A program made the translations under genes and the position numbers. A stretch of DNA of 64,000 bases from Spirochaetaceae bacterium (GTDB lineage: Bacteria > Spirochaetota > Spirochaetia > Treponematales > Treponemataceae), in contig JAGAAX010000039.1 of assembly GCA_017614995.1 (NCBI GenBank), positions 62,001 to 126,000 of the forward strand, written 5' to 3'. The notes under the pieces were generated by a model that saw nothing but the letters and a program-made list of their open reading frames with translations, was not told the origin of the DNA and made no database searches. Shown here one piece after another: positions 10,924 to 62,831 of the stretch. Position 1 is the stretch's first letter, and each line of letters opens with the position of its first letter.

Positions 10924-13038
10924 CTATTCATATTCTTCAACGGAATCTGCACGGCTTGTGAGATTTTGAATTTCAGAACTGATGGTCGTACTTATGTTCA
11001 AAAGCGATTCTGTTTCAGTGCGGACTTCTTCTGTAATGCTTGTCATCTGTGCCAAAGAAGAAAGAACCTGCTTGCCGCCGATACTCTGCTCTTCTATGGA
11101 AGTCTTAATAACATTTTCCTGAGACTTAACCGTATTTGAAAGGTCAACAACCTGATCAAAGCGTTTCTGAGCCTCAATAGAAGATTCTGAAGTTTTGTCT
11201 ATCTTCTCTTTTATCTGCTTCAATACATTTGAGATTGTCTGCGCCTGTTTTCCTGAATTTTCTGCAAGCTTACGGATTTCATCTGCAACAACAGCGAAAC
11301 CTTTTCCGGCATTTCCGGCATGAGCCGCTTCAATAGCAGCGTTCATTGCCAAAAGATTTGTCTGGGTTGCAATTTCTTCGATAACGGTGCTTGTCTGAAC
11401 AAGGTTCTGAGAATCAGCCAAAATCTGCTTGATGTGCTCCGAAACGACATTCAAGCCCTTCTTGCCGTCGTTAGAAGCAGTCGCCAAATTTGCTACAGCC
11501 TCGCTGTTCTGGTCAAGAATCTGGGTAATTGAAGCAATGCTGGCTACCATTTCCTCAATAGAAGCCGATGACTGCGTTACATGATTTGTCATGTCTGCTG
11601 TCTTTGCAGCAAGCTTTTTAATCTGCTCCATGTTCAGATTGAATTTCTCGATACTTGATGCAACAACATCTTCGATAGCTTCTTTTACTTTTACATGTCT
11701 TTCTTCAGAAGCCTTTTTGATTGCAAGGTCATTATAATGGCAGCAGTTTTCAGGCCGGTTAAAGCCGTTATAAACAGCTAAAGCCATCTGGTCACAATCA
11801 TTATAACCGCATGCACCGCAGTTCAAGAAATCTCTTGCCTTGTGCTTGTGCATAGCTATGTGCACGTGACGGATTTCTTCCCTAGTCGGCTGCTTTACAA
11901 ACTGTGAGAAAATATCGCTTCTGTCTATGTATTTTCTGTCGTACATGCCTTCGCGCCAGTATTTATTCAGACTTTTAGAGAAAGCTTTTTCTGCGCCGCG
12001 GGCTGTGCGGAAAAGGTATTTTTTCCTATTGTCAGCAATTGCCTTGAGATTGCGTTTTTCAATATCATACTCAAGAGAACCTAAAGAACGGAGTTTGTTA
12101 GAAGTTGCAGGACCGCCGTTACAGCCGTTCTTGCAGCTAAGACAGTCTATTACCTTATAGGTGACATTCGTATTCTTTTTTAAAGCTTCGTCCAGACTTT
12201 CAAAATAATCGTATACTTCGGGAACACCTTCAACTTTTCTTATCTTTATTGTTTCTTTAGGCAGTTCGCGTGCTATGGTTCTCATCAAGCCGCCCGGCAT
12301 AGAAAACAGAACGGCACGCTCGGCTTTTGGTCCGTCAAAATCTCTCGGCGGATAGTCATTTATCTTTATATCATTGTTCAGTATGTATTTTTCAAGCGAA
12401 ATAATAGTGACATTATAATCGCCAAGACCTATATCATCAAATTCATGGCGCTTGGCATAACAGGGCGAAATAACCGCAATTTTATGGTCTTTATATTCCG
12501 GAAAAAATGTTCTGATCATTTTCATAGTATGCGCCATAGGGCTGTCTGCCGGAGCAAGACAAGGAATCAAATCAGGGTGATACATTTCAACATAAGAAAC
12601 AAGCGCAGGGCAAGGCTGGGCAAGAAATGCTTTGGGGTTATGCTTTTTAAGATATTCAATATATGATTTTACGGTAAGTTCAGCACCATAGCTGACATCA
12701 AAAATGGCAAAAACACCCATTGAATGAAGCCAGCTATTAAAAGAAAGATAATTTCCGTCAAAACTGGCAGCAACGGCAGGTGCTACAATTGCAATAATCC
12801 GCTCTTTTCTCTGTAATGCTTCAAAAAAAGCCTTAGAATTATCCATGCCGGTACGCGCGCCCGTCGGACAAGCTGAAATACATGCACCGCAACTGATACA
12901 TAATTCATGTATTACTTTAACATGATCTCCAGAAGCATCATTACAAAACTTTACAGGACATACAGAAATGCAGCGGCGGCAATTGATACATTTTTCTGCA
13001 TCTACATCGATAACTGCACTTAAATAACGGTCTGACAC
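10924..13038 (-). CDS. Hydrogenase-like sensory methyl-accepting chemotaxis protein (cytosolic)
   Basis: This 704-residue protein has no membrane span. Domain order: two [4Fe-4S] ferredoxin motifs (Cys17/20/23/27 and 47/50/53/57); an [FeFe]-hydrogenase large-subunit domain (about 75-330) with H-cluster loops AQPCP (Cys143), SPCYAK (Cys193) and SCKNGC (Cys302, Cys306); an Fe-S motif CGACGYNDC...C (407/410/415/432); and an MCP signalling hairpin (about 450-700) with the canonical tip [19 protein letters not shown]. The proton-transfer Cys next to Cys143 is Pro, so a sensor rather than a turnover enzyme is likely. This matches the 'chemotactic' sensory [FeFe] class. Output should go through CheA/CheW. 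The start is a GTG with a GAGGAG SD. Confidence 0.92.
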
Positions 13039-52769: not shown

Positions 52770-54599
52770 TTATAGATTAAGCGAGGCGGCGTAATCCTTT
52801 AATTCGTTGATTTCGTCTTTTAGGGTTTCAATGCCGCTTAACCAAAAGTCTCTGGTCTCAATATCGAAACCGGCTTTGCGGCATACTTCTTCACATGAAA
52901 GTCTGCCTGTCTCAAAAAGTATAGTCTTGTAGGTTTTGGCGAAACCTGCACCTTCTTTTTTGTAGCGCGCATAAAGCCCTGCGCTGAAAAGCATACCAAA
53001 AGCATACGGAAAATTATAAAAGTCTAGGCTTGTGCTGTAATAATGTGATTTTAGCGCCCACATATAAGGGTGATATTCAGCTAAAGAGCCATAAGTCTTT
53101 TTTTGGGCATCTAGCATTAAATTGCAGAATTCTTCAGATGAAAGCTCGCCGTCCTGGCGCTTTTCAAAAACGGCGCGCTCAAAGTAAAACCTTGAGAGAA
53201 TGTCGATAAGCACCTGGCAGCAGTCCTGAAGATGAAGTTCTATCATACTTATGCGCTCAAAGCCGCTTGTTGAGGCGATAATGCCCTTTTGAACGATTGT
53301 TTCAGCAAAGTTAGAAGCAGTCTCGGCAAGCGTCATCGGATACTGCGTGAGCTCGTAATCGCGGTCTTTTATGCAGTAAAAATGGTAGGCGTGTCCAAGC
53401 TCGTGCGCCAAAGTCGTAATGTCAGAAAAAGAGCCTGAAAAATTCGATAAAATGCGCGAAACCTTTTGTTTTGGAAAATCCATGCAATAAGCGCCGCCGA
53501 CTTTGCCCTCTCTGATTTCTGCGTCTACCCAGTTATTGGCAAAAGCGTTTTTAGCAAAATCGCCCAACTCAGCAGAAAACGAACTAAATCGCTCAATTAT
53601 ATAGTTTTTAGCTTCTTCAAAAGTCCATGTCTTTGAGAGCATGTTTTCAGCTTGCCCTGCACAATTGTCCTGGAGCGGTGCAAACAAGTCGTAGAACGCC
53701 AGTTTCGGATTCTTTTCCTTAGGAAAAAGAAGTTTTGCTTTTACAGCCAAATATTCCTGCCAGAGCGGAATCGAGCTTTCGATTGAGCCGATGAGAGCGT
53801 CTAAAGTTTTTGCGCTTATTCTTGACTGCGCCAGAGCCTTGTCTAATGCGGTCTGCCAAAGCCTGCGCTTGTTAAGCGTAATTGTAGTGCCTTTTATGCT
53901 GTTAAGACACGCTGCAAGCGGAATTGACATGCCCTCTAAAAGCTTAAGCTCTTTCTCAAAAGAAGCTTTCCTTAAAGCGCGGTCTTTGTCGTATGCATCG
54001 TTTCTTAACTGGTTAAATGTTTTTCCTGTTTCAGAGTCTTTTAAAGTTGAAATAATCTGTTCCTGAAGCCGGCTGAAACTTTCAGCTCCGCTTAAATTAA
54101 GCTGGTCTGCAAGCTCTTCAAGTTCGGGCTTCATATTGTGCTTGTTTAAGGCGACCGTCTCTTCAAAAATGTAAGAATATTCTTCTAATTGTGGAAATCT
54201 TGTGTATATATCTGTTAATGATTGTGGATAACTATTAACAACTTGAGAAAAAGCGGTTGAAAACTTGAGATTAATCTGTTCAATGTCAATAAACAAGTTT
54301 TCTATGCAGGAAATCTGGTTTATAAGCTGTGAATTTGTTGTATCTACCGAATAGGCTGAATAAACATAGGCATAAAGCGAGCCTGCAACGCTTTGAAGCC
54401 TGTTTGACTTTTCGACGAAATCAGCAACCCATTGTGGAAAATCTGTGGAAAAAAGATTTGACGCTAAAAGTGCATTTAATTCAGTTTTTAGCGTATCGAG
54501 CTGTGCCATATCGCTTTTGAAATCGTTGCTTTCAAAAGACTTGTAAATCGATGCTAAATCCCATCTTGGAGCGGCTAAACTGTTCATTTTTTTCCTCAA
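52770..54599 (-). CDS. pepF: Oligoendopeptidase F (M3 family)
   Basis: This 609-residue protein has zinc motif LAHELGHAYHF and a downstream Glu in MTLAETASNFAE, typical of PepF. It degrades peptides of moderate length in the cytosol. It overlaps the hydrogenase-like phosphodiesterase gene by 4 nt (ATGA), so both are co-translated. Confidence 0.94.
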   Translation of the reverse strand: MRKKMNSLAAPRWDLASIYKSFESNDFKSDMAQLDTLKTELNALLASNLFSTDFPQWVADFVEKSNRLQSVAGSLYAYVYSAYSVDTTNSQLINQISCIENLFIDIEQINLKFSTAFSQVVNSYPQSLTDIYTRFPQLEEYSYIFEETVALNKHNMKPELEELADQLNLSGAESFSRLQEQIISTLKDSETGKTFNQLRNDAYDKDRALRKASFEKELKLLEGMSIPLAACLNSIKGTTITLNKRRLWQTALDKALAQSRISAKTLDALIGSIESSIPLWQEYLAVKAKLLFPKEKNPKLAFYDLFAPLQDNCAGQAENMLSKTWTFEEAKNYIIERFSSFSAELGDFAKNAFANNWVDAEIREGKVGGAYCMDFPKQKVSRILSNFSGSFSDITTLAHELGHAYHFYCIKDRDYELTQYPMTLAETASNFAETIVQKGIIASTSGFERISMIELHLQDCCQVLIDILSRFYFERAVFEKRQDGELSSEEFCNLMLDAQKKTYGSLAEYHPYMWALKSHYYSTSLDFYNFPYAFGMLFSAGLYARYKKEGAGFAKTYKTILFETGRLSCEEVCRKAGFDIETRDFWLSGIETLKDEINELKDYAASLNL

Positions 54600-57184
54600 T
54601 ATTGTTTGTTAATCAATCTTTGTTCAAAGTCTTCGACAGAGAGCGGCTTGTCAAATATAAAGCCCTGAATGACGTTGCATTTCAGTTTTTTAAGAATTGA
54701 AAGCTCTTCTTTGGTTTCAACTCCTTCAGCAATTACTGACATATTAAGCTCTTTTGCCATGTTGATGACGTTTGCGATTACGGTTCTTGCCCGTTTGTTG
54801 ACCACAACCGTCTTTATAAAGCTTTTGTCAAGCTTGAGAACGTCAAAGTCTAGGTCTTGCAGCAGGCTGAGAGAAGAATAGCCCGAACCGAAATCGTCTA
54901 TGGAAACCGGAATGCCTTTGTCTTTCAGTATGTCTATAGTGTTTTTCAAGATTTCTTTCATTTCGGCAATTGACGTCTCTGTAAATTCAACTTCTATTAA
55001 ATTATGCGGAATCTTCCAGAAGTCAATGATGTTGCAGATACGTTCCGCAACTTCTTGGTGCGTAAAATGCTGTTTAGAAAAGTTTACAGAAATCGGAACA
55101 AGCTCTATGCCCTTTTTTATCCATTCATCAAGCTTTTTGCAAATCTGATTGAGCATAAAAAAGTCGAGCCTTTTGATAAAACCTGTCGATTCACAAACCG
55201 GAATAAATTTGTCAGGCGGAACGACTGTGCCGTTGTGGTTCCATCTTATTAAAGCTTCTGCGCCGACAAGCTTGTTTGTAAGCTGGTTGACTTTGGGCTG
55301 ATAAACCACATAAAGCGAATTATTCAAAAGTGCCTGCTGAATATGCTGGCTTATCGAAATTGTCTGCGAGACTTGTTTTGCAATGTCCTGGTCGTAAACC
55401 AAAAAGTCTTTGTTATGCAGCGAGCGGACTGTAAAATATGTTGTAGAAATCCGGTCTATAACGGTGTCTGTGTTCGGTTCGCTGCCTGTAATATTGTAGA
55501 GAGCCGCTCTTATAGAAAGATTGCTTATATCAGCAATCTGAAACTGCTTAAGCGTCAAAAGCTCAAGATGGTTCAGCTTGTAGAACAAGTCGTTTATACG
55601 CTCTTTTTTCGATATAACATAAAAGTTGTTTCCGTTTAGAAGATAGATTTTCTCATTTTTGGTTTCGTCAAACAGCTCTCTTGCTTTTGTGGCAAATTCG
55701 GCAAGAATATCGTTGCCTTTTATAAAACCCACCTGCTGATTGATAAATATAAAATTCTTTATGTTTATCTGCATTACGGCAAAGTCGCTGCTGTTTGGGG
55801 CGGCAAGAACGTCTGATAAGTCTTTGATAAACAAATACTTGTTCGGAAGCCCTGTAAGCTGGTCGTATGTAAAAAGCTTATAGTTTTCCTCTTTCTCGTA
55901 TTGAACACAGTTTTCGATGTTGTTGTAGCCGTTTGCGACAGCTTCTGCCATCTGATGGCACGAGTTGTAGCCGCAGGCATGACAGTCTATGTGCCTTGAT
56001 TCTTCGCTTGTTTTATGCATACGCACAAAAACTTCGTTGATTATCTCTTTGGGCACTGTAAACGGCTTCAGATACTTGCTGTGAAATTCTCTGTGAAAGT
56101 CTTGCAGGTCTAAATCTTTGAAATTGCTTCTGAAAAGGTCAAGGCGCGTTGTTCTCGGCAGAGTGCGGTCGTATTCTTTTGACTTGCCGTTCTGCAGAAT
56201 GTTGAATCTTATGCACTGATGCTGTTCGACGATTTTTTCTATAGAAAAGCTTGTTTTGTCTATACATGGACCTGAACAGCAGCCGTTGTTGCAGTTTAAA
56301 AGCTCGAAAAACACGCCTTTTGTGCAGTTATGCTCGGCAATTGACTTTAGAGAGCCCAGCTCTGATCTGCTGTATAAGACCGGTGACTTGCTTATGATTG
56401 TCTTTTCGTAGCCGATAAAATGCTCAAGGTTTTCTTTCATTCCGCCGGGAAAAGGATAAAGCGCGCCGAGATCGAAATCAGCAATATCGCTTTCTGAATA
56501 ATACTGATTAAAGTCAATGTCTTTCAGCTTTTTAAAGAAATGCTCGAATGTGACGTTGTAGCTTATTAAATTATGTGTGGCTTCGTCCTCAATTTCTGGA
56601 AAATTTGAAATACAGGGGCTTAAAAACACCAGTTTGTTGCTGTCGTTTAAGTATTTGCGCACATAAACGGCAAGACAAAAAATCGGGGAATAAATCGGAA
56701 TAAGCGCAGGAATAATCGACGGCTCGTATTTTTCTATAAAATTTACGATAGTCGGGCAGGTTGCAATAATTCCGCCCTGATTTGCGTCATTCAGAAAATA
56801 CTCAATATGCGCCCAAGTGGAAATATCTGCGCCAAAGCTGGCATTGTAGATTTTTTTTACGCCTATTGAGCGCAGATAGCCCAAAACGCCGTTTGCTATG
56901 TTCGGGTAATTTATGAAAAAAGACGGGTCAATGGCTATAGAAAGACTTTCTCCGTTATTTAGGTCTTGAAAAAAAGAGTCTGTGTCGTCAACGTAATAGC
57001 GTGCATCGTGTTTGCAGACACTCAGGCATTGTCCGCAGAGAATGCACTTTGACATGTTTACACGAATATGATTCTTATTATTTTTTTTTTCGGCAATATT
57101 TGCTCCCGGAATCGGGCAGCATGAAATGCAGTGGTTGCAGCCGATACAATTATCATTTGTATAGATATAATGCTTCATATTCAT
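54596..57184 (-). CDS. Hydrogenase-like sensor fused to degenerate GGDEF and EAL c-di-GMP phosphodiesterase
   Basis: This 862-residue protein has no membrane span. Order: two [4Fe-4S] motifs (Cys13/16/19/23 and 47/50/53/57); an [FeFe]-hydrogenase domain with loops ATCP (Cys143), SPC (Cys191) and NCNNGC (Cys298, Cys302); an Fe-S motif CHACGYNSC...C (401/404/409/426); a GGDEF domain (about 435-600) with the catalytic motif eroded to NGNNF; and an EAL domain (610-855) with GAEALIRW, N701, E733, DDFGSGYSS, K784 and AEGVE intact. It should hydrolyse c-di-GMP under control of the metal-cluster input. The Cys before Cys143 is replaced by Thr. The start may be 57184 or 57178; no SD is seen. Confidence 0.9.
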   Translation of the reverse strand: MNMKHYIYTNDNCIGCNHCISCCPIPGANIAEKKNNKNHIRVNMSKCILCGQCLSVCKHDARYYVDDTDSFFQDLNNGESLSIAIDPSFFINYPNIANGVLGYLRSIGVKKIYNASFGADISTWAHIEYFLNDANQGGIIATCPTIVNFIEKYEPSIIPALIPIYSPIFCLAVYVRKYLNDSNKLVFLSPCISNFPEIEDEATHNLISYNVTFEHFFKKLKDIDFNQYYSESDIADFDLGALYPFPGGMKENLEHFIGYEKTIISKSPVLYSRSELGSLKSIAEHNCTKGVFFELLNCNNGCCSGPCIDKTSFSIEKIVEQHQCIRFNILQNGKSKEYDRTLPRTTRLDLFRSNFKDLDLQDFHREFHSKYLKPFTVPKEIINEVFVRMHKTSEESRHIDCHACGYNSCHQMAEAVANGYNNIENCVQYEKEENYKLFTYDQLTGLPNKYLFIKDLSDVLAAPNSSDFAVMQINIKNFIFINQQVGFIKGNDILAEFATKARELFDETKNEKIYLLNGNNFYVISKKERINDLFYKLNHLELLTLKQFQIADISNLSIRAALYNITGSEPNTDTVIDRISTTYFTVRSLHNKDFLVYDQDIAKQVSQTISISQHIQQALLNNSLYVVYQPKVNQLTNKLVGAEALIRWNHNGTVVPPDKFIPVCESTGFIKRLDFFMLNQICKKLDEWIKKGIELVPISVNFSKQHFTHQEVAERICNIIDFWKIPHNLIEVEFTETSIAEMKEILKNTIDILKDKGIPVSIDDFGSGYSSLSLLQDLDFDVLKLDKSFIKTVVVNKRARTVIANVINMAKELNMSVIAEGVETKEELSILKKLKCNVIQGFIFDKPLSVEDFEQRLINKQY

Positions 57185-57224
57185 ATACTGAATTCAGTAT
57201 AAATGATGAATTTTGATGCGTCAA
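57184..57224 (-). promoter_or_regulatory. Promoter and 18-bp palindromic operator of the hydrogenase-like EAL gene
   Basis: TTGACG (complement of 57219-57224), 17 nt, TATACT (complement of 57196-57201). The perfect palindrome TATACTGAATTCAGTATA (57184-57201) covers the -10 box, the transcription start and the first base of the ATG, so a bound repressor would block initiation. Confidence 0.75.
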
Positions 57225-57246: not shown

Positions 57247-58731
57247 TTAAGTTTTGAAAAACATCTGTACGCCGGTTTTTGGGTGCGTAAAGCCCAGCTC
57301 AAATGCGTGCAGCATTAGCCTTTCGTTTTCGGTCTGTGTGCCGTAAAGGTTGTCGCCGATAATCGGGGCATTTAAGCCATGAATACTTGAAGAATGAAGC
57401 CGTAGCTGGTGCGTGCGCCCGGTTTCAGGCTCAAAAATAACGCCAACAGGCTCATAATTTTTGCGGAAATGTTCAAGCTGGGTTTTGTTAAGCCTGAACA
57501 CTGGAAGCATGGCTTCAGCTTCTTGCGGCGGCAGAAACTGAAAGTTTGTAATGCCCCATTTACCGTAAATTTCGTCGTAGATTTGGTGCGGTCTGTTTTC
57601 AACGTCCAGTCTGAACGGCAGCTCGATTCTGCCCGAAACCGGCTCATTTTCAATTACGGGGTTAAGCTTGCAGCCTTTGCCGAAGCTGGGCTTGTTTTTT
57701 AGAAAAGCCACATATTTTTTGTGCACTTTTCCTTCCATAAATTGAACCGAAAGGTTTTTGTGGCTTTCTTTGTCGAGTGCCAGAACCAGAAGCCCAGAAG
57801 TATCCATGTCGAGGCGGTGCACTGACGGCTGCTCAATACATTGTGGAAAAATCCGCTTTAGGCGCGTTGTTACGCTGTCAAGCTTGTCTTCGCCGCGTCC
57901 CGGTATCGACAGAAGCCCGGACGGTTTGTTTATAACCACAATTGAATCATCGCGGTATAGGATTTCAAGCCCCAAAATAAAGGGCAGAATCGGCGCACAT
58001 TTCTCGTCGCAGGGTGGGTAAAACTCTTTATGGCGTTTTTTCTTTGAAGCCGGTTCTGTTCCATAATAGAATTCTGCAAGGCTTATAGGTTTCAGTTTAT
58101 GCTGAAACACAAAACTCAATAGTTTCGGCGCGCAGCATTCTCCGCAGCCTGTAGGCGGCTGCGTTCCGTCTTTAAAGATGTCTTTAAATTGCAGAAGATT
58201 TCCGTCAGCGCAATAAAACCTGTATAAAGAGAAAATTTCAGTCATTGACTGCTGCGACATGGTTTTGCGCTCTTTTTGAAGCGCACTTTTTGCGCGCCTT
58301 AACGACTTAAGGTACTGCACTTGGGCAAAATCAGGCTTTTCTTCAAGATATCGGCTTTCTAAAGTCTTAATCTCTTTTGTTAGCGCTTCAATCTGGTCTG
58401 TTAGCTGGTGTATAAGCCGGTCTGACTCTTTTGTAGTCTCGTAGAATGTTGTTTCGTCAAGCAGCGGCGGCACCCAGCCGGGAACATTCCAGACGCTGTT
58501 GAACTGACCTGAAAAAGCTTTTAAGACAATTTCCTCGTTGTTTTGGTTAAGGCAGACGCATACGCCGAACATCTGGCCGAGAGAATCTTTTTGAGTTATA
58601 CAGTCTGTGGAAAATTTTGCATCGCTTTTGTCTATTGGCGTTTCAAAGTCTATACGTTTTTCAGCATCAAGTTTTTGCATTAAGTCAATGCAGTATTTTT
58701 TAGCTTTTTCTTCAGGTAAAGGCGCAAACAT
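57247..58731 (-). CDS. RluA-family pseudouridine synthase with N-terminal extension
   Basis: This 494-residue protein has an N-terminal domain (1-245) with helical segments and Cys pairs (GCGECCAPKLL, PPCDEKCAP). The RluA catalytic domain follows, with INKPSGLLSIPGRG, HRLDMDTSGLLVLA (catalytic Asp) and EPETGRTHQLRLH. This long form is known in other bacteria. It targets rRNA or tRNA uridine; the site is unknown. Confidence 0.88.
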   Translation of the reverse strand: MFAPLPEEKAKKYCIDLMQKLDAEKRIDFETPIDKSDAKFSTDCITQKDSLGQMFGVCVCLNQNNEEIVLKAFSGQFNSVWNVPGWVPPLLDETTFYETTKESDRLIHQLTDQIEALTKEIKTLESRYLEEKPDFAQVQYLKSLRRAKSALQKERKTMSQQSMTEIFSLYRFYCADGNLLQFKDIFKDGTQPPTGCGECCAPKLLSFVFQHKLKPISLAEFYYGTEPASKKKRHKEFYPPCDEKCAPILPFILGLEILYRDDSIVVINKPSGLLSIPGRGEDKLDSVTTRLKRIFPQCIEQPSVHRLDMDTSGLLVLALDKESHKNLSVQFMEGKVHKKYVAFLKNKPSFGKGCKLNPVIENEPVSGRIELPFRLDVENRPHQIYDEIYGKWGITNFQFLPPQEAEAMLPVFRLNKTQLEHFRKNYEPVGVIFEPETGRTHQLRLHSSSIHGLNAPIIGDNLYGTQTENERLMLHAFELGFTHPKTGVQMFFKT

Positions 58732-60668: not shown

Positions 60669-62678
60669 CTAGGCAAAGGTGCGGTTGCTGTTTCTTTGGA
60701 TAAATTCTTTGAAATCGGCGACATTCATCGGTTTGGCGTAGTAGAAGCCTTGTATAAGGTTGCAGCCGATTTCTTTTAGGCTTAGGGCAGAAATCTCGTC
60801 CTCAATGCCTTCTGCAAGCGTAACCATGCCCTTTTCGTTTGCCATGCTGACAAGATGTTTCAGGCAAATCATGTTCTGCTCGTCTTTGCAGGCAAGGTCT
60901 ATCAGCGACTTGTCGAATTTAATCTCAAAGAACGGATAAGACATAAGGCGCGCTGTGTTAGAAAAGCCTGTTCCATAATCGTCAAGCGCAAAAAGAACGC
61001 CTTTTTTTGTAAGCGAATTGAGCATGTGCCCAAAGTTAATTTCGTCCTCGGCAGCAAGAGATTCAGTTATTTCAAAACGGAATACATCTTTTGGGAGCTT
61101 GTAAGAAGAGATAATGTCAAGCAAATGTTCGACAATATTGGCTTGAAAGAGCTGCATGACTGAAAGGTTTATATTTACCGTTTCTATACCGAATTCAAGC
61201 AGGTTTGTCTCAAGAATGAATTCGCAGGTCTTTTTTAGCGCAATGTCGCCAATTTGAAGAATATCGCCGTTGCGTTCAGATTCGGGTATAAATTCAACAG
61301 GCGGAATATATCTGCCGTCGTTGCCTTTTAAGCGGATAAGCGATTCAGCACCAATAAAACGCTTTTTGACTGTGCTGTAAATAGGCTGCAAAAAAACCTC
61401 GAAAGATTCATTCTGAATTGCGTCCTGAACGGTGTGAATAATGGCTTTTTTCTCATAAAATTTGTTGAAAAGCGAATAATCGAGCGTTACAACCGAGTCA
61501 GGTTCAGGCTTTATGTGGGCAACTGCAAATTTCAGAATGTCGATAATTTCGTCTGTAAGCAGAAATTTGTGCTCGTCTTTAAGCACGTTAAAAATTTTTA
61601 AGTTTTCAATTTTATAGATTGAAAGGTTGATGCGGTAAGCAAGCGTTTTTGAGACATTTTCAGAAAAATTGACATAAAACGGATTTTTAGAAATTTCAGA
61701 AAGAATCTGGGTTTTTCCGTTTGAAACGTCGCCGCTTTCGCAGAAAAAGCCGTAAGTGTTGTCCGCAATATGAAACAGATACTTGTTCTCGCACGAGGCA
61801 TTTATGTGCTTAAGATAGTTTGTAATAAGCTTATAGGCATGCGTTGTGCCTATTTGAATCTTTAGCGAGTTGAAATTATCAAGCTGAAAGAAAATAAGCG
61901 AAACCGGCTTTCTAGAATTTACAGAAACATTTAAGAATTCTGTAAAAGCCGCCTTGTTATATGTGTCTGTCGATTTATGCACATAAGAAAGCGGATTCTT
62001 GAGCGCCAGAAAGCACACAAGCAGAGAAACCGAAATTGCAAAGCCTATAACAAGGCAGTGCGGGTTAAAATACTGAAAAATAATGGCAACAACCAGAGCA
62101 ATGCTGTAAAAAACCACGCATGTAATTGTTGCAGCTTTTATCTTCTTTTTGAATTTAAAGCAGTGAATAAGCCCAAGAATAATGTAGAAGCCGGCAATTA
62201 TGTAGAGAACGGTCATGCCTGCGCCATGATGATAAGCACCGGTTTCGTCGTTGTACATTGTCCAATGCGTCAACGGCGATGTAATTGTAGAAATCAGAAT
62301 ATAGTAGACTGTTAAGCCGAGCGTGTATTTAATCACTTTTGGGGTTTCAGCATAAGTGTGTGTCATTGAAAGCAAAAAGTAATAGTAAAACAGCGGAATC
62401 ATGTTTACTGAAAGAATGTGTACAATGTTTACTATGTTGGTTAAGACCGGCGCTTTTAACGCATAATACTGATTTGTATAAACGGACAGAAGATTAAAGA
62501 TAATGCCGGTTAGAGCAGATGCCGTCAAAAGTAGAAAAACTTTAGAATTATGAGTCGGAAAATGTTTGTAAAAAATCAGAACAGCAAGAATAATCGACGT
62601 AATGATAAGGCTTGCAATATCGAAATATATAATGTAATTCACAAAGTTAATATATAGACAATAGAATTTTATGTCCAT
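60669..62678 (-). CDS. Membrane EAL-domain c-di-GMP phosphodiesterase with degenerate GGDEF
   Basis: This 669-residue protein has seven or so N-terminal spans (about 15-235) resembling the 7TM sensor domains of signalling kinases. A GGDEF-like domain follows with its catalytic motif lost (ADNTY). The EAL domain has GAESLIRL (Glu about 445), NINLSV, FEITES, DDYGTGFSN, KFDKSL and AEGIE. The metal and base residues are kept, so it is probably active. The start at 62678 is by topology; GGAG lies 14 nt upstream and an in-frame TTG at 62711 is an alternative. Confidence 0.87.
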   Translation of the reverse strand: MDIKFYCLYINFVNYIIYFDIASLIITSIILAVLIFYKHFPTHNSKVFLLLTASALTGIIFNLLSVYTNQYYALKAPVLTNIVNIVHILSVNMIPLFYYYFLLSMTHTYAETPKVIKYTLGLTVYYILISTITSPLTHWTMYNDETGAYHHGAGMTVLYIIAGFYIILGLIHCFKFKKKIKAATITCVVFYSIALVVAIIFQYFNPHCLVIGFAISVSLLVCFLALKNPLSYVHKSTDTYNKAAFTEFLNVSVNSRKPVSLIFFQLDNFNSLKIQIGTTHAYKLITNYLKHINASCENKYLFHIADNTYGFFCESGDVSNGKTQILSEISKNPFYVNFSENVSKTLAYRINLSIYKIENLKIFNVLKDEHKFLLTDEIIDILKFAVAHIKPEPDSVVTLDYSLFNKFYEKKAIIHTVQDAIQNESFEVFLQPIYSTVKKRFIGAESLIRLKGNDGRYIPPVEFIPESERNGDILQIGDIALKKTCEFILETNLLEFGIETVNINLSVMQLFQANIVEHLLDIISSYKLPKDVFRFEITESLAAEDEINFGHMLNSLTKKGVLFALDDYGTGFSNTARLMSYPFFEIKFDKSLIDLACKDEQNMICLKHLVSMANEKGMVTLAEGIEDEISALSLKEIGCNLIQGFYYAKPMNVADFKEFIQRNSNRTFA

Positions 62679-62831
62679 AAATTTTCTAAAATCTCCAATT
62701 AGAATTAACAAAGTAAATGTTTTGTATCTTAATTTGAGAAACTTTGTAAATTTTTATAAACGAAGATTATATATTTGTTGACTTATTGACTGACTTTATT
62801 ATTCTGATTTGTTATAATTCAGAAGAATCAG

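What the first reader, a model, noticed from the sequence alone, without database searches (positions are those of the whole stretch)
54596..57184. [FeFe]-hydrogenase-like sensor wired to a c-di-GMP phosphodiesterase
Seen: one soluble polypeptide joins two ferredoxin motifs, an H-cluster domain with four ligand cysteines (143, 191, 298, 302), a further Fe-S motif, an eroded GGDEF and an EAL domain with all metal and catalytic residues. Known: sensory [FeFe] hydrogenases are described with kinase, phosphatase and chemotaxis links. Direct fusion to GGDEF-EAL is, as far as I know, little or not described. Inference: H2 or redox state sets c-di-GMP level, and so motility or attachment, in an H2-rich gut niche.
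Basis: partly seen in the sequence, partly recalled or inferred. Interest (0 to 1): 0.8.

Follow-up and report, generated by a model that had tools for sequence, protein, structure and literature searches.

The report
Hydrogenase-derived sensor on c-di-GMP phosphodiesterase
In gut spirochaetes and some gut Firmicutes, a protein module borrowed from hydrogen-handling enzymes is fused to an enzyme that destroys the bacterial signal c-di-GMP, and in this lineage the module keeps its iron-sulfur sites but seems to be losing the part that handles hydrogen.

Summary
ORF 54596-57184 (minus strand, 862 aa) is two [4Fe-4S] ferredoxin motifs, an [FeFe]-hydrogenase H-domain, a C-terminal Cx2Cx4Cx16C cluster, a dead GGDEF and an intact EAL domain. 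It is no oddity: the same fusion is in 58 of 274 genomes of its spirochaete family (all verified), in one distant spirochaete and in nine Lachnospiraceae genomes, and arose at least twice. I found no published description.

The H2-sensor inference is only partly supported. This genome does have HydE, HydF and HydG. But across the family the fusion is independent of HydG (16 of 58 carriers against 58 of 216 others, odds ratio 1.04), and all 25 HydG-lacking carriers tested also lack HydE. All cluster cysteines are invariant, yet residues lining the organometallic [2Fe] site are eroded in the spirochaete clade: the cyanide-contact lysine is kept in 17 of 35, against 100% in every related sensor group, and is Asn here.

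Best reading: a cytosolic c-di-GMP phosphodiesterase gated by iron-sulfur/redox state, with the [2Fe] site lost or being lost here. True H2 sensing is more plausible in the Lachnospiraceae fusions. More than half of the spirochaete genes have an adjacent NosP-like FIST gene; this genome has none.

The parts
54596..57184 (-). H-domain/GGDEF/EAL fusion protein, 862 aa
57116..57148 (-). first [4Fe-4S] ferredoxin motif, C13-C23 (CxxCxxCxxxC)
   Evidence: invariant in 43 aligned proteins
57014..57046 (-). second [4Fe-4S] ferredoxin motif, C47-C57
   Evidence: invariant in 43 aligned proteins
56255..56974 (-). [FeFe]-hydrogenase H-domain, res 71-310; ligand Cys 143, 191, 298, 302; C299->T142, Q325->I168, M353->S189, K358->N194, M497->L296 (CpI numbering)
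   Evidence: PF02906; alignment to the genome's own HydA; fold match
55907..55984 (-). C-terminal [4Fe-4S] motif Cx2Cx4Cx16C, C401-C426, as in TmHydS/TamHydS
   Evidence: PF04060; motif named in PMC8163306
55385..55870 (-). degenerate GGDEF domain (signature NGNNF)
54644..55345 (-). EAL c-di-GMP phosphodiesterase domain with complete active site
57196..57224 (-). sigma-70-like promoter TTGACG-17-TATACT directly upstream, conserved in four species of the genus
57185..57200 (-). perfect 16-bp palindrome ATACTGAATTCAGTAT overlapping the -10 box; not conserved in two of the four species
52770..54599 (-). M3-family (PepF-like, by reading of the sequence) oligopeptidase, overlapping the fusion gene by 4 bases; neighbour kept in four species of the genus
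57247..58731 (-). RNA pseudouridylate synthase (PF00849), upstream neighbour kept in the genus

Best explanation
The protein is a cytosolic c-di-GMP phosphodiesterase whose EAL activity is switched by an N-terminal module descended from sensory [FeFe]-hydrogenases. [quoted passage not shown] the output domain begins about 10 residues after the last cysteine of the C-terminal cluster; EAL is complete; GGDEF cannot be a normal cyclase. INFERRED: a change in oxidation state or occupancy of the Fe-S chain (low-potential electron pressure via ferredoxin, or cluster damage by O2, NO or iron lack) moves the helix that leaves the C-terminal cluster, shifts the GGDEF-EAL dimer and turns c-di-GMP hydrolysis up or down, and so motility or attachment. 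INFERRED: in this spirochaete clade the organometallic [2Fe] subcluster is no longer needed, so H2 itself is probably not the ligand here; in the Lachnospiraceae fusions, which keep the [2Fe] pocket and mostly have HydG, H2 could still be sensed.
For: (1) Fusion vs HydG in 274 genomes: 16/58 vs 58/216, odds ratio 1.04, p = 1; detection is sound, HydG and HydF agree (odds ratio 502). (2) None of 34 HydG-lacking genomes, 25 of them fusion carriers, has HydE; 4 of 4 HydG-positive controls do. 14 of 22 high-quality carrier genomes have neither HydG nor HydF. (3) Cubane-ligand cysteines 35/35; K358 equivalent Lys only 17/35 in spirochaete fusions against 5/5, 9/9, 13/13, 3/3 in the other sensor groups and 21/21 in group A HydA aligned from the same family. 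Of H-domain columns invariant in 33 other sensors, [2Fe]-lining ones are kept less (mean 0.41) than the rest (0.69), p about 0.02. (4) H-domain dN/dS stays low in maturase-less pairs (about 0.04-0.21), so it still works without maturases. (5) EAL site intact in all 35. (6) The same module carries EAL, MCP or histidine-kinase outputs, all joined after the C-terminal cluster.
Against: This genome has all three maturases, so the protein could be matured. Group A HydA proteins with a complete [2Fe] pocket also occur in near-complete genomes of this family without HydE/F/G, so unknown maturation cannot be excluded and absence of maturases is weaker evidence than it looks. M497 and C299 vary in proven sensory hydrogenases too (PMC10055695), so only part of the pocket argument is specific. 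The pocket statistic is modest, its site set was chosen by me, and rows are related. dS is near saturation in many pairs. In TamHydS the C-terminal cluster did not change redox state under H2 (PMC13104023), so the proposed signal path is unproven.
Confidence: 0.5

Rival explanations
1. H2 sensor: HydE/F/G install [2Fe]H, H2 binding reduces the H-cluster and the signal passes through the C-terminal cluster to the EAL domain, setting c-di-GMP by H2.
For: Maturases in this genome; homology to group C/D sensors and the shared Cx2Cx4Cx16C cluster; missing proton-shuttle Cys is normal for sensors (PMC10055695); H2-metabolising host with group A HydA; Lachnospiraceae fusions keep the pocket and 7 of 9 have full HydG.
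Against: No association of the fusion with maturases; K358->N194 and M497->L296 here, the latter change blocking proper [2Fe] insertion in a prototypical enzyme (PMC10055695); pocket erosion across the clade.
Confidence: 0.3
2. H2 or redox sensor with unconventional maturation: these spirochaetes build a diiron site without HydE/F/G.
For: Group A HydA with intact TSCCP / MPCTAK / EVMAC motifs in complete or near-complete genomes lacking HydE, HydF and HydG.
Against: Such HydA could work without H2 or be recent leftovers; no alternative maturase was looked for or is known to me; the spirochaete fusion pockets are eroded.
Confidence: 0.1
3. The H-domain is a structural leftover: EAL is constitutively active or controlled by other proteins, and the Fe-S clusters only hold the fold.
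For: TamHydS shows that one N-terminal cluster is needed for structural integrity (PMC13104023); the H-domain evolves faster than the EAL domain.
Against: 16 ligand cysteines invariant over deep divergence, purifying selection on the H-domain, the same module on three kinds of signalling output, and at least two separate EAL fusions.
Confidence: 0.1

Closest known systems
[quoted passage not shown]
   Same: Two N-terminal [4Fe-4S] clusters, H-domain with four ligand cysteines, no C299, C-terminal Cx2Cx4Cx16C cluster (PMC8163306, PMC13104023).
   Different: Output is a fused GGDEF-EAL, no PAS domain between cluster and output; CN-contact lysine lost here; spirochaete relatives often in genomes without maturases.
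HydDB groups C1 (histidine kinase-linked), C2 (chemotactic), C3 (phosphatase-linked)
   Same: Putative H2 sensors sorted by signalling partner (PMC5037454); the window's other H-domain protein (10924-13038) has the C2-like MCP form.
   Different: None of the listed classes has an EAL/c-di-GMP output.
[NiFe] group 2c, diguanylate cyclase-linked (putative)
   Same: Same idea: hydrogenase-type sensor tied to c-di-GMP (PMC5037454).
   Different: Unrelated metal enzyme, and linked to synthesis rather than a fused phosphodiesterase.
DosP (PdeO), oxygen-sensing c-di-GMP phosphodiesterase
   Same: Best sequence match for the GGDEF-EAL half: redox/gas-sensing input, dead GGDEF, active EAL.
   Different: Haem-PAS input instead of Fe-S/H-domain.
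Eukaryotic Nar1/IOP1 (NARFL), from memory
   Same: Hydrogenase-like proteins that keep Fe-S cysteines but work without the [2Fe] site: a precedent for the proposed loss.
   Different: Fe-S assembly factors, not signalling proteins; not compared here.

Membership tests
Sensory [FeFe]-hydrogenase (group C/D) | Two ferredoxin-type [4Fe-4S] sites plus H-domain with four cluster-ligand cysteines | tested here: met
Sensory [FeFe]-hydrogenase (group C/D) | C-terminal Cx2Cx4Cx16C [4Fe-4S] motif | tested here: met
   C401-C426; motif from PMC8163306
Sensory [FeFe]-hydrogenase (group C/D) | Altered C299/M353/M497 positions typical of sensors | tested here: met
   T142, S189, L296
Sensory [FeFe]-hydrogenase (group C/D) | Residues that hold [2Fe] by hydrogen bonds, said to be conserved in sensors (PMC10055695); K358 taken as the test | tested here: not met
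   N194 here; Lys in 17/35 spirochaete fusions, in all members of the other sensor groups. The paper passages read do not name K358; its role is from general knowledge
Sensory [FeFe]-hydrogenase (group C/D) | PAS domain after the C-terminal cluster (group C only) | tested here: not met
   GGDEF follows within about 12 residues
Sensory [FeFe]-hydrogenase (group C/D) | Maturases HydE/F/G in the genome | tested here: met
   but not in most carriers
Sensory [FeFe]-hydrogenase (group C/D) | Phylogenetic placement with TmHydS/TamHydS | not tested
   reference sequences could not be fetched with the tools left
Sensory [FeFe]-hydrogenase (group C/D) | Binds an H-cluster and reacts with H2 | not testable with these tools
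   needs FTIR/EPR and H2 assays
EAL c-di-GMP phosphodiesterase | Complete metal and catalytic residues and EAL fold | tested here: met
EAL c-di-GMP phosphodiesterase | Hydrolyses c-di-GMP | not testable with these tools
   bench assay
Diguanylate cyclase | GG[D/E]EF active-site signature | tested here: not met
   NGNNF

The most novel reading that the evidence does not exclude
A whole family of hydrogenase-derived signalling proteins has given up the organometallic [2Fe] centre and works as a pure iron-sulfur sensor that controls c-di-GMP (and, on other branches, chemotaxis and kinase outputs), in genomes with no H-cluster maturases; in many spirochaetes it is operon-paired with a FIST (NosP-like) sensor, while a separate Lachnospiraceae branch keeps a true H2-gated phosphodiesterase.
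Probability: 0.4. Interest if true: 0.75.

Novelty: new variant of a known kind. Interest (0 to 1): 0.6.

Why it matters
It would link hydrogenase-type iron-sulfur chemistry to c-di-GMP, the messenger that sets motile versus attached life, in abundant gut spirochaetes and Lachnospiraceae. The census of c-di-GMP input signals read here (PMC8846402) mentions no hydrogenase or iron-sulfur sensor, and HydDB lists no [FeFe] class with c-di-GMP output. It also challenges a working rule: an H-domain with all its cysteines is usually read as an H2 enzyme or H2 sensor, yet here the domain persists under selection in dozens of genomes without HydE/F/G.

Tried and rejected
Chance assembly chimera: rejected (conserved architecture and synteny). 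Active diguanylate cyclase: rejected for this protein (NGNNF), although two relatives, L023 and L027, keep GGDEF. Single origin of all EAL fusions: rejected (AU p = 0.0002), with the caveat of long branches and of a group named after seeing the tree. HydG absence as proof of no H-cluster: weakened by the HydA control. Correlation of HydG with the K358-position Lys (6/13 vs 11/22) or with FIST adjacency: none found. Riboswitch or other Rfam RNA at the locus: only three tRNAs in the window. Searches for the phrase 'fefe hydrogenase' are probably uninformative because papers print a bracket after FeFe. TmHydS/TamHydS reference sequences could not be fetched, so formal group placement was not done. 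The paper expected to cover K358 mutants is not held.

Full report
OBSERVATION. The gene runs on the minus strand, 57184 down to 54596, and encodes 862 residues without interruption. Pfam finds ferredoxin-type 4Fe-4S domains, Fe_hyd_lg_C, the FeS domain PF04060, GGDEF and EAL, all significant. The C-terminal motif is C401-x2-C404-x4-C409-x16-C426, exactly the Cx2Cx4Cx16C motif of sensory hydrogenases (PMC8163306). An AlphaFold2 model matches [FeFe]-hydrogenases over residues 2-370 (Z 30.1, 3.2 A over 349 residues) and EAL phosphodiesterases over 606-861 (Z 29). The relative placement of the domains is not reliable (pTM 0.54).

CONTEXT. The window lies in a 3.05 Mb, 64-contig spirochaete genome (95% complete); a close relative's record is titled uncultured Spirochaetales. 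The family name Treponemataceae is my inference. The gene has its own TTGACG-17-TATACT promoter, conserved in four species of the genus, and sits between a pseudouridylate synthase and an M3-type peptidase; that order is kept in three further species. The genome has six Fe_hyd_lg_C proteins. One lies in the same window (10924-13038) and carries a chemotaxis-receptor output; another, at a contig edge, looks alike. HydG and HydF are neighbours on the same contig, HydE lies on another.

DISTRIBUTION. A search of 274 genomes of the family with the N-terminal 432 residues gave 58 carriers of an H-domain-GGDEF-EAL protein; I confirmed the EAL domain in all 58. Many have a longer C-terminus, with a PAS match in some of them. 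Across the phylum one further carrier, from a distant family, turned up (G346), while four others carry kinase-type C-termini. In named genomes, nine Lachnospiraceae/Clostridiales records (Roseburia and others) have the same fusion, while most Lachnospiraceae relatives carry MCP or hybrid-kinase outputs. In a tree of the sensor module, EAL fusions fall in two places: one clade with most spirochaete and all Lachnospiraceae fusions, and three spirochaete proteins nested among Lachnospiraceae kinase forms. A single clade is rejected (AU p = 0.0002). The module is therefore a portable input domain that met EAL at least twice.

IS H2 THE SIGNAL? I tested this three ways. First, maturases: HydG is in 74 of 274 genomes, HydF in 80, with near-perfect agreement (odds ratio 502). 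The fusion is not associated with HydG (16 of 58 carriers, 58 of 216 others; odds ratio 1.04, p = 1), and 42 carriers have neither HydG nor HydF. HydE is also absent in all 34 HydG-lacking genomes tested, 25 of them carriers, and present in four HydG-positive controls. Second, residues: the four cubane ligands are invariant in 35 of 35, but the Lys that contacts a cyanide of [2Fe] (K358 in CpI numbering; role from general knowledge) is Lys in only 17 of 35 spirochaete fusions, against all members of every other sensor group examined and 21 of 21 group A HydA. In this protein it is Asn194, and the M497 position is Leu296; M497L in a prototypical enzyme lacked a properly integrated [2Fe] cluster (PMC10055695). 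Among H-domain columns invariant in 33 other sensors, the [2Fe]-lining ones are kept less often (0.41 vs 0.69, p about 0.02), while ferredoxin and C-terminal cluster regions stay at 0.96 and 0.91. Third, selection: dN/dS of the H-domain is low in maturase-less pairs as well (dS is often near saturation, so these are rough).

THE CONTROL THAT LIMITS THIS. Group A HydA with complete catalytic motifs also occurs in complete or near-complete genomes of this family that lack HydE, HydF and HydG. Either those HydA proteins do something without H2, or an unknown maturation route exists. So maturase absence alone cannot prove that the fusion lacks a [2Fe] site; the residue evidence carries more weight for this clade.

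MECHANISM. In EAL, kinase and MCP versions the output starts shortly after the last cysteine of the C-terminal cluster, which makes that cluster and the following helix the likely physical switch (inference). For TamHydS the C-terminal cluster was not reduced by H2 (PMC13104023), so the switch may be conformational or respond to other redox inputs. My best explanation is a phosphodiesterase gated by Fe-S/redox state (0.5); H2 sensing as first proposed stands at 0.3.

PARTNER. In 31 of the 58 carriers and in G346 a FIST-domain gene ends at the start of the fusion gene, with overlap or a short gap. It matches NosP weakly (1e-35 to 1e-39, far below the curated cut-off). NosP is an NO sensor acting on c-di-GMP circuits (PMC8846402). 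This genome has no FIST gene, so the partner is not essential.

KNOWN OR NEW. HydDB lists C1-C3 [FeFe] sensors by kinase, chemotaxis and phosphatase links, and a diguanylate-cyclase-linked [NiFe] class 2c (PMC5037454); no [FeFe] class with c-di-GMP output. A review of [FeFe] diversity has no mention of GGDEF or EAL, and a census of c-di-GMP inputs has no mention of hydrogenase or iron-sulfur. The one paper found with FeFe, hydrogenase and EAL domain is about gene neighbourhoods of [NiFe]-hydrogenase and was not read. Only open-licence papers were searched. From memory, a 2012 study of termite-gut treponemes (Ballor, Paulsen, Leadbetter) described hydrogenases and H2 sensors there; it should be checked. 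Verdict: observation confirmed, new variant of a known kind, H2 as signal unproven and, in this clade, less likely than redox sensing.

Noticed in passing
10924-13038 (minus) and G000:C37:1-1692 (L006): Two more H-domain proteins in the same genome, one with an MCP signalling domain (HydDB C2-like) and one alike but cut by the contig end: three H-domain signalling proteins in one genome.
   Followed up: partly
L066:4840-5967, L067:4871-5983, L072:4846-5961, L075:4833-5948 and others: FIST-domain (NosP-like) gene directly upstream of the H-domain-EAL gene in 31 of 58 spirochaete carriers and in one distant spirochaete; absent from the window's genome.
   Followed up: partly
G035, G038, G041, G103, G131, G145, G260, G261 and others (L089-L100): Group A HydA with complete catalytic motifs in complete or near-complete genomes that lack HydE, HydF and HydG: orphan hydrogenases or unknown maturation.
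   Followed up: partly
60669-62711 (minus): A second EAL-domain protein with a hydrophobic, probably membrane-bound N-terminus about 3.5 kb upstream; syntenic in a sister species (L063).
   Followed up: no
57185-57200: Perfect 16-bp palindrome ATACTGAATTCAGTAT between the -10 box and the start codon, leaving almost no leader; not conserved in two of the four species of the genus.
   Followed up: partly
L121, L156 (Lachnospiraceae P6A3, XBB2008): Lachnospiraceae genomes with MCP-type H-domain sensors but no HydG match: maturase-less sensors are not confined to spirochaetes.
   Followed up: no
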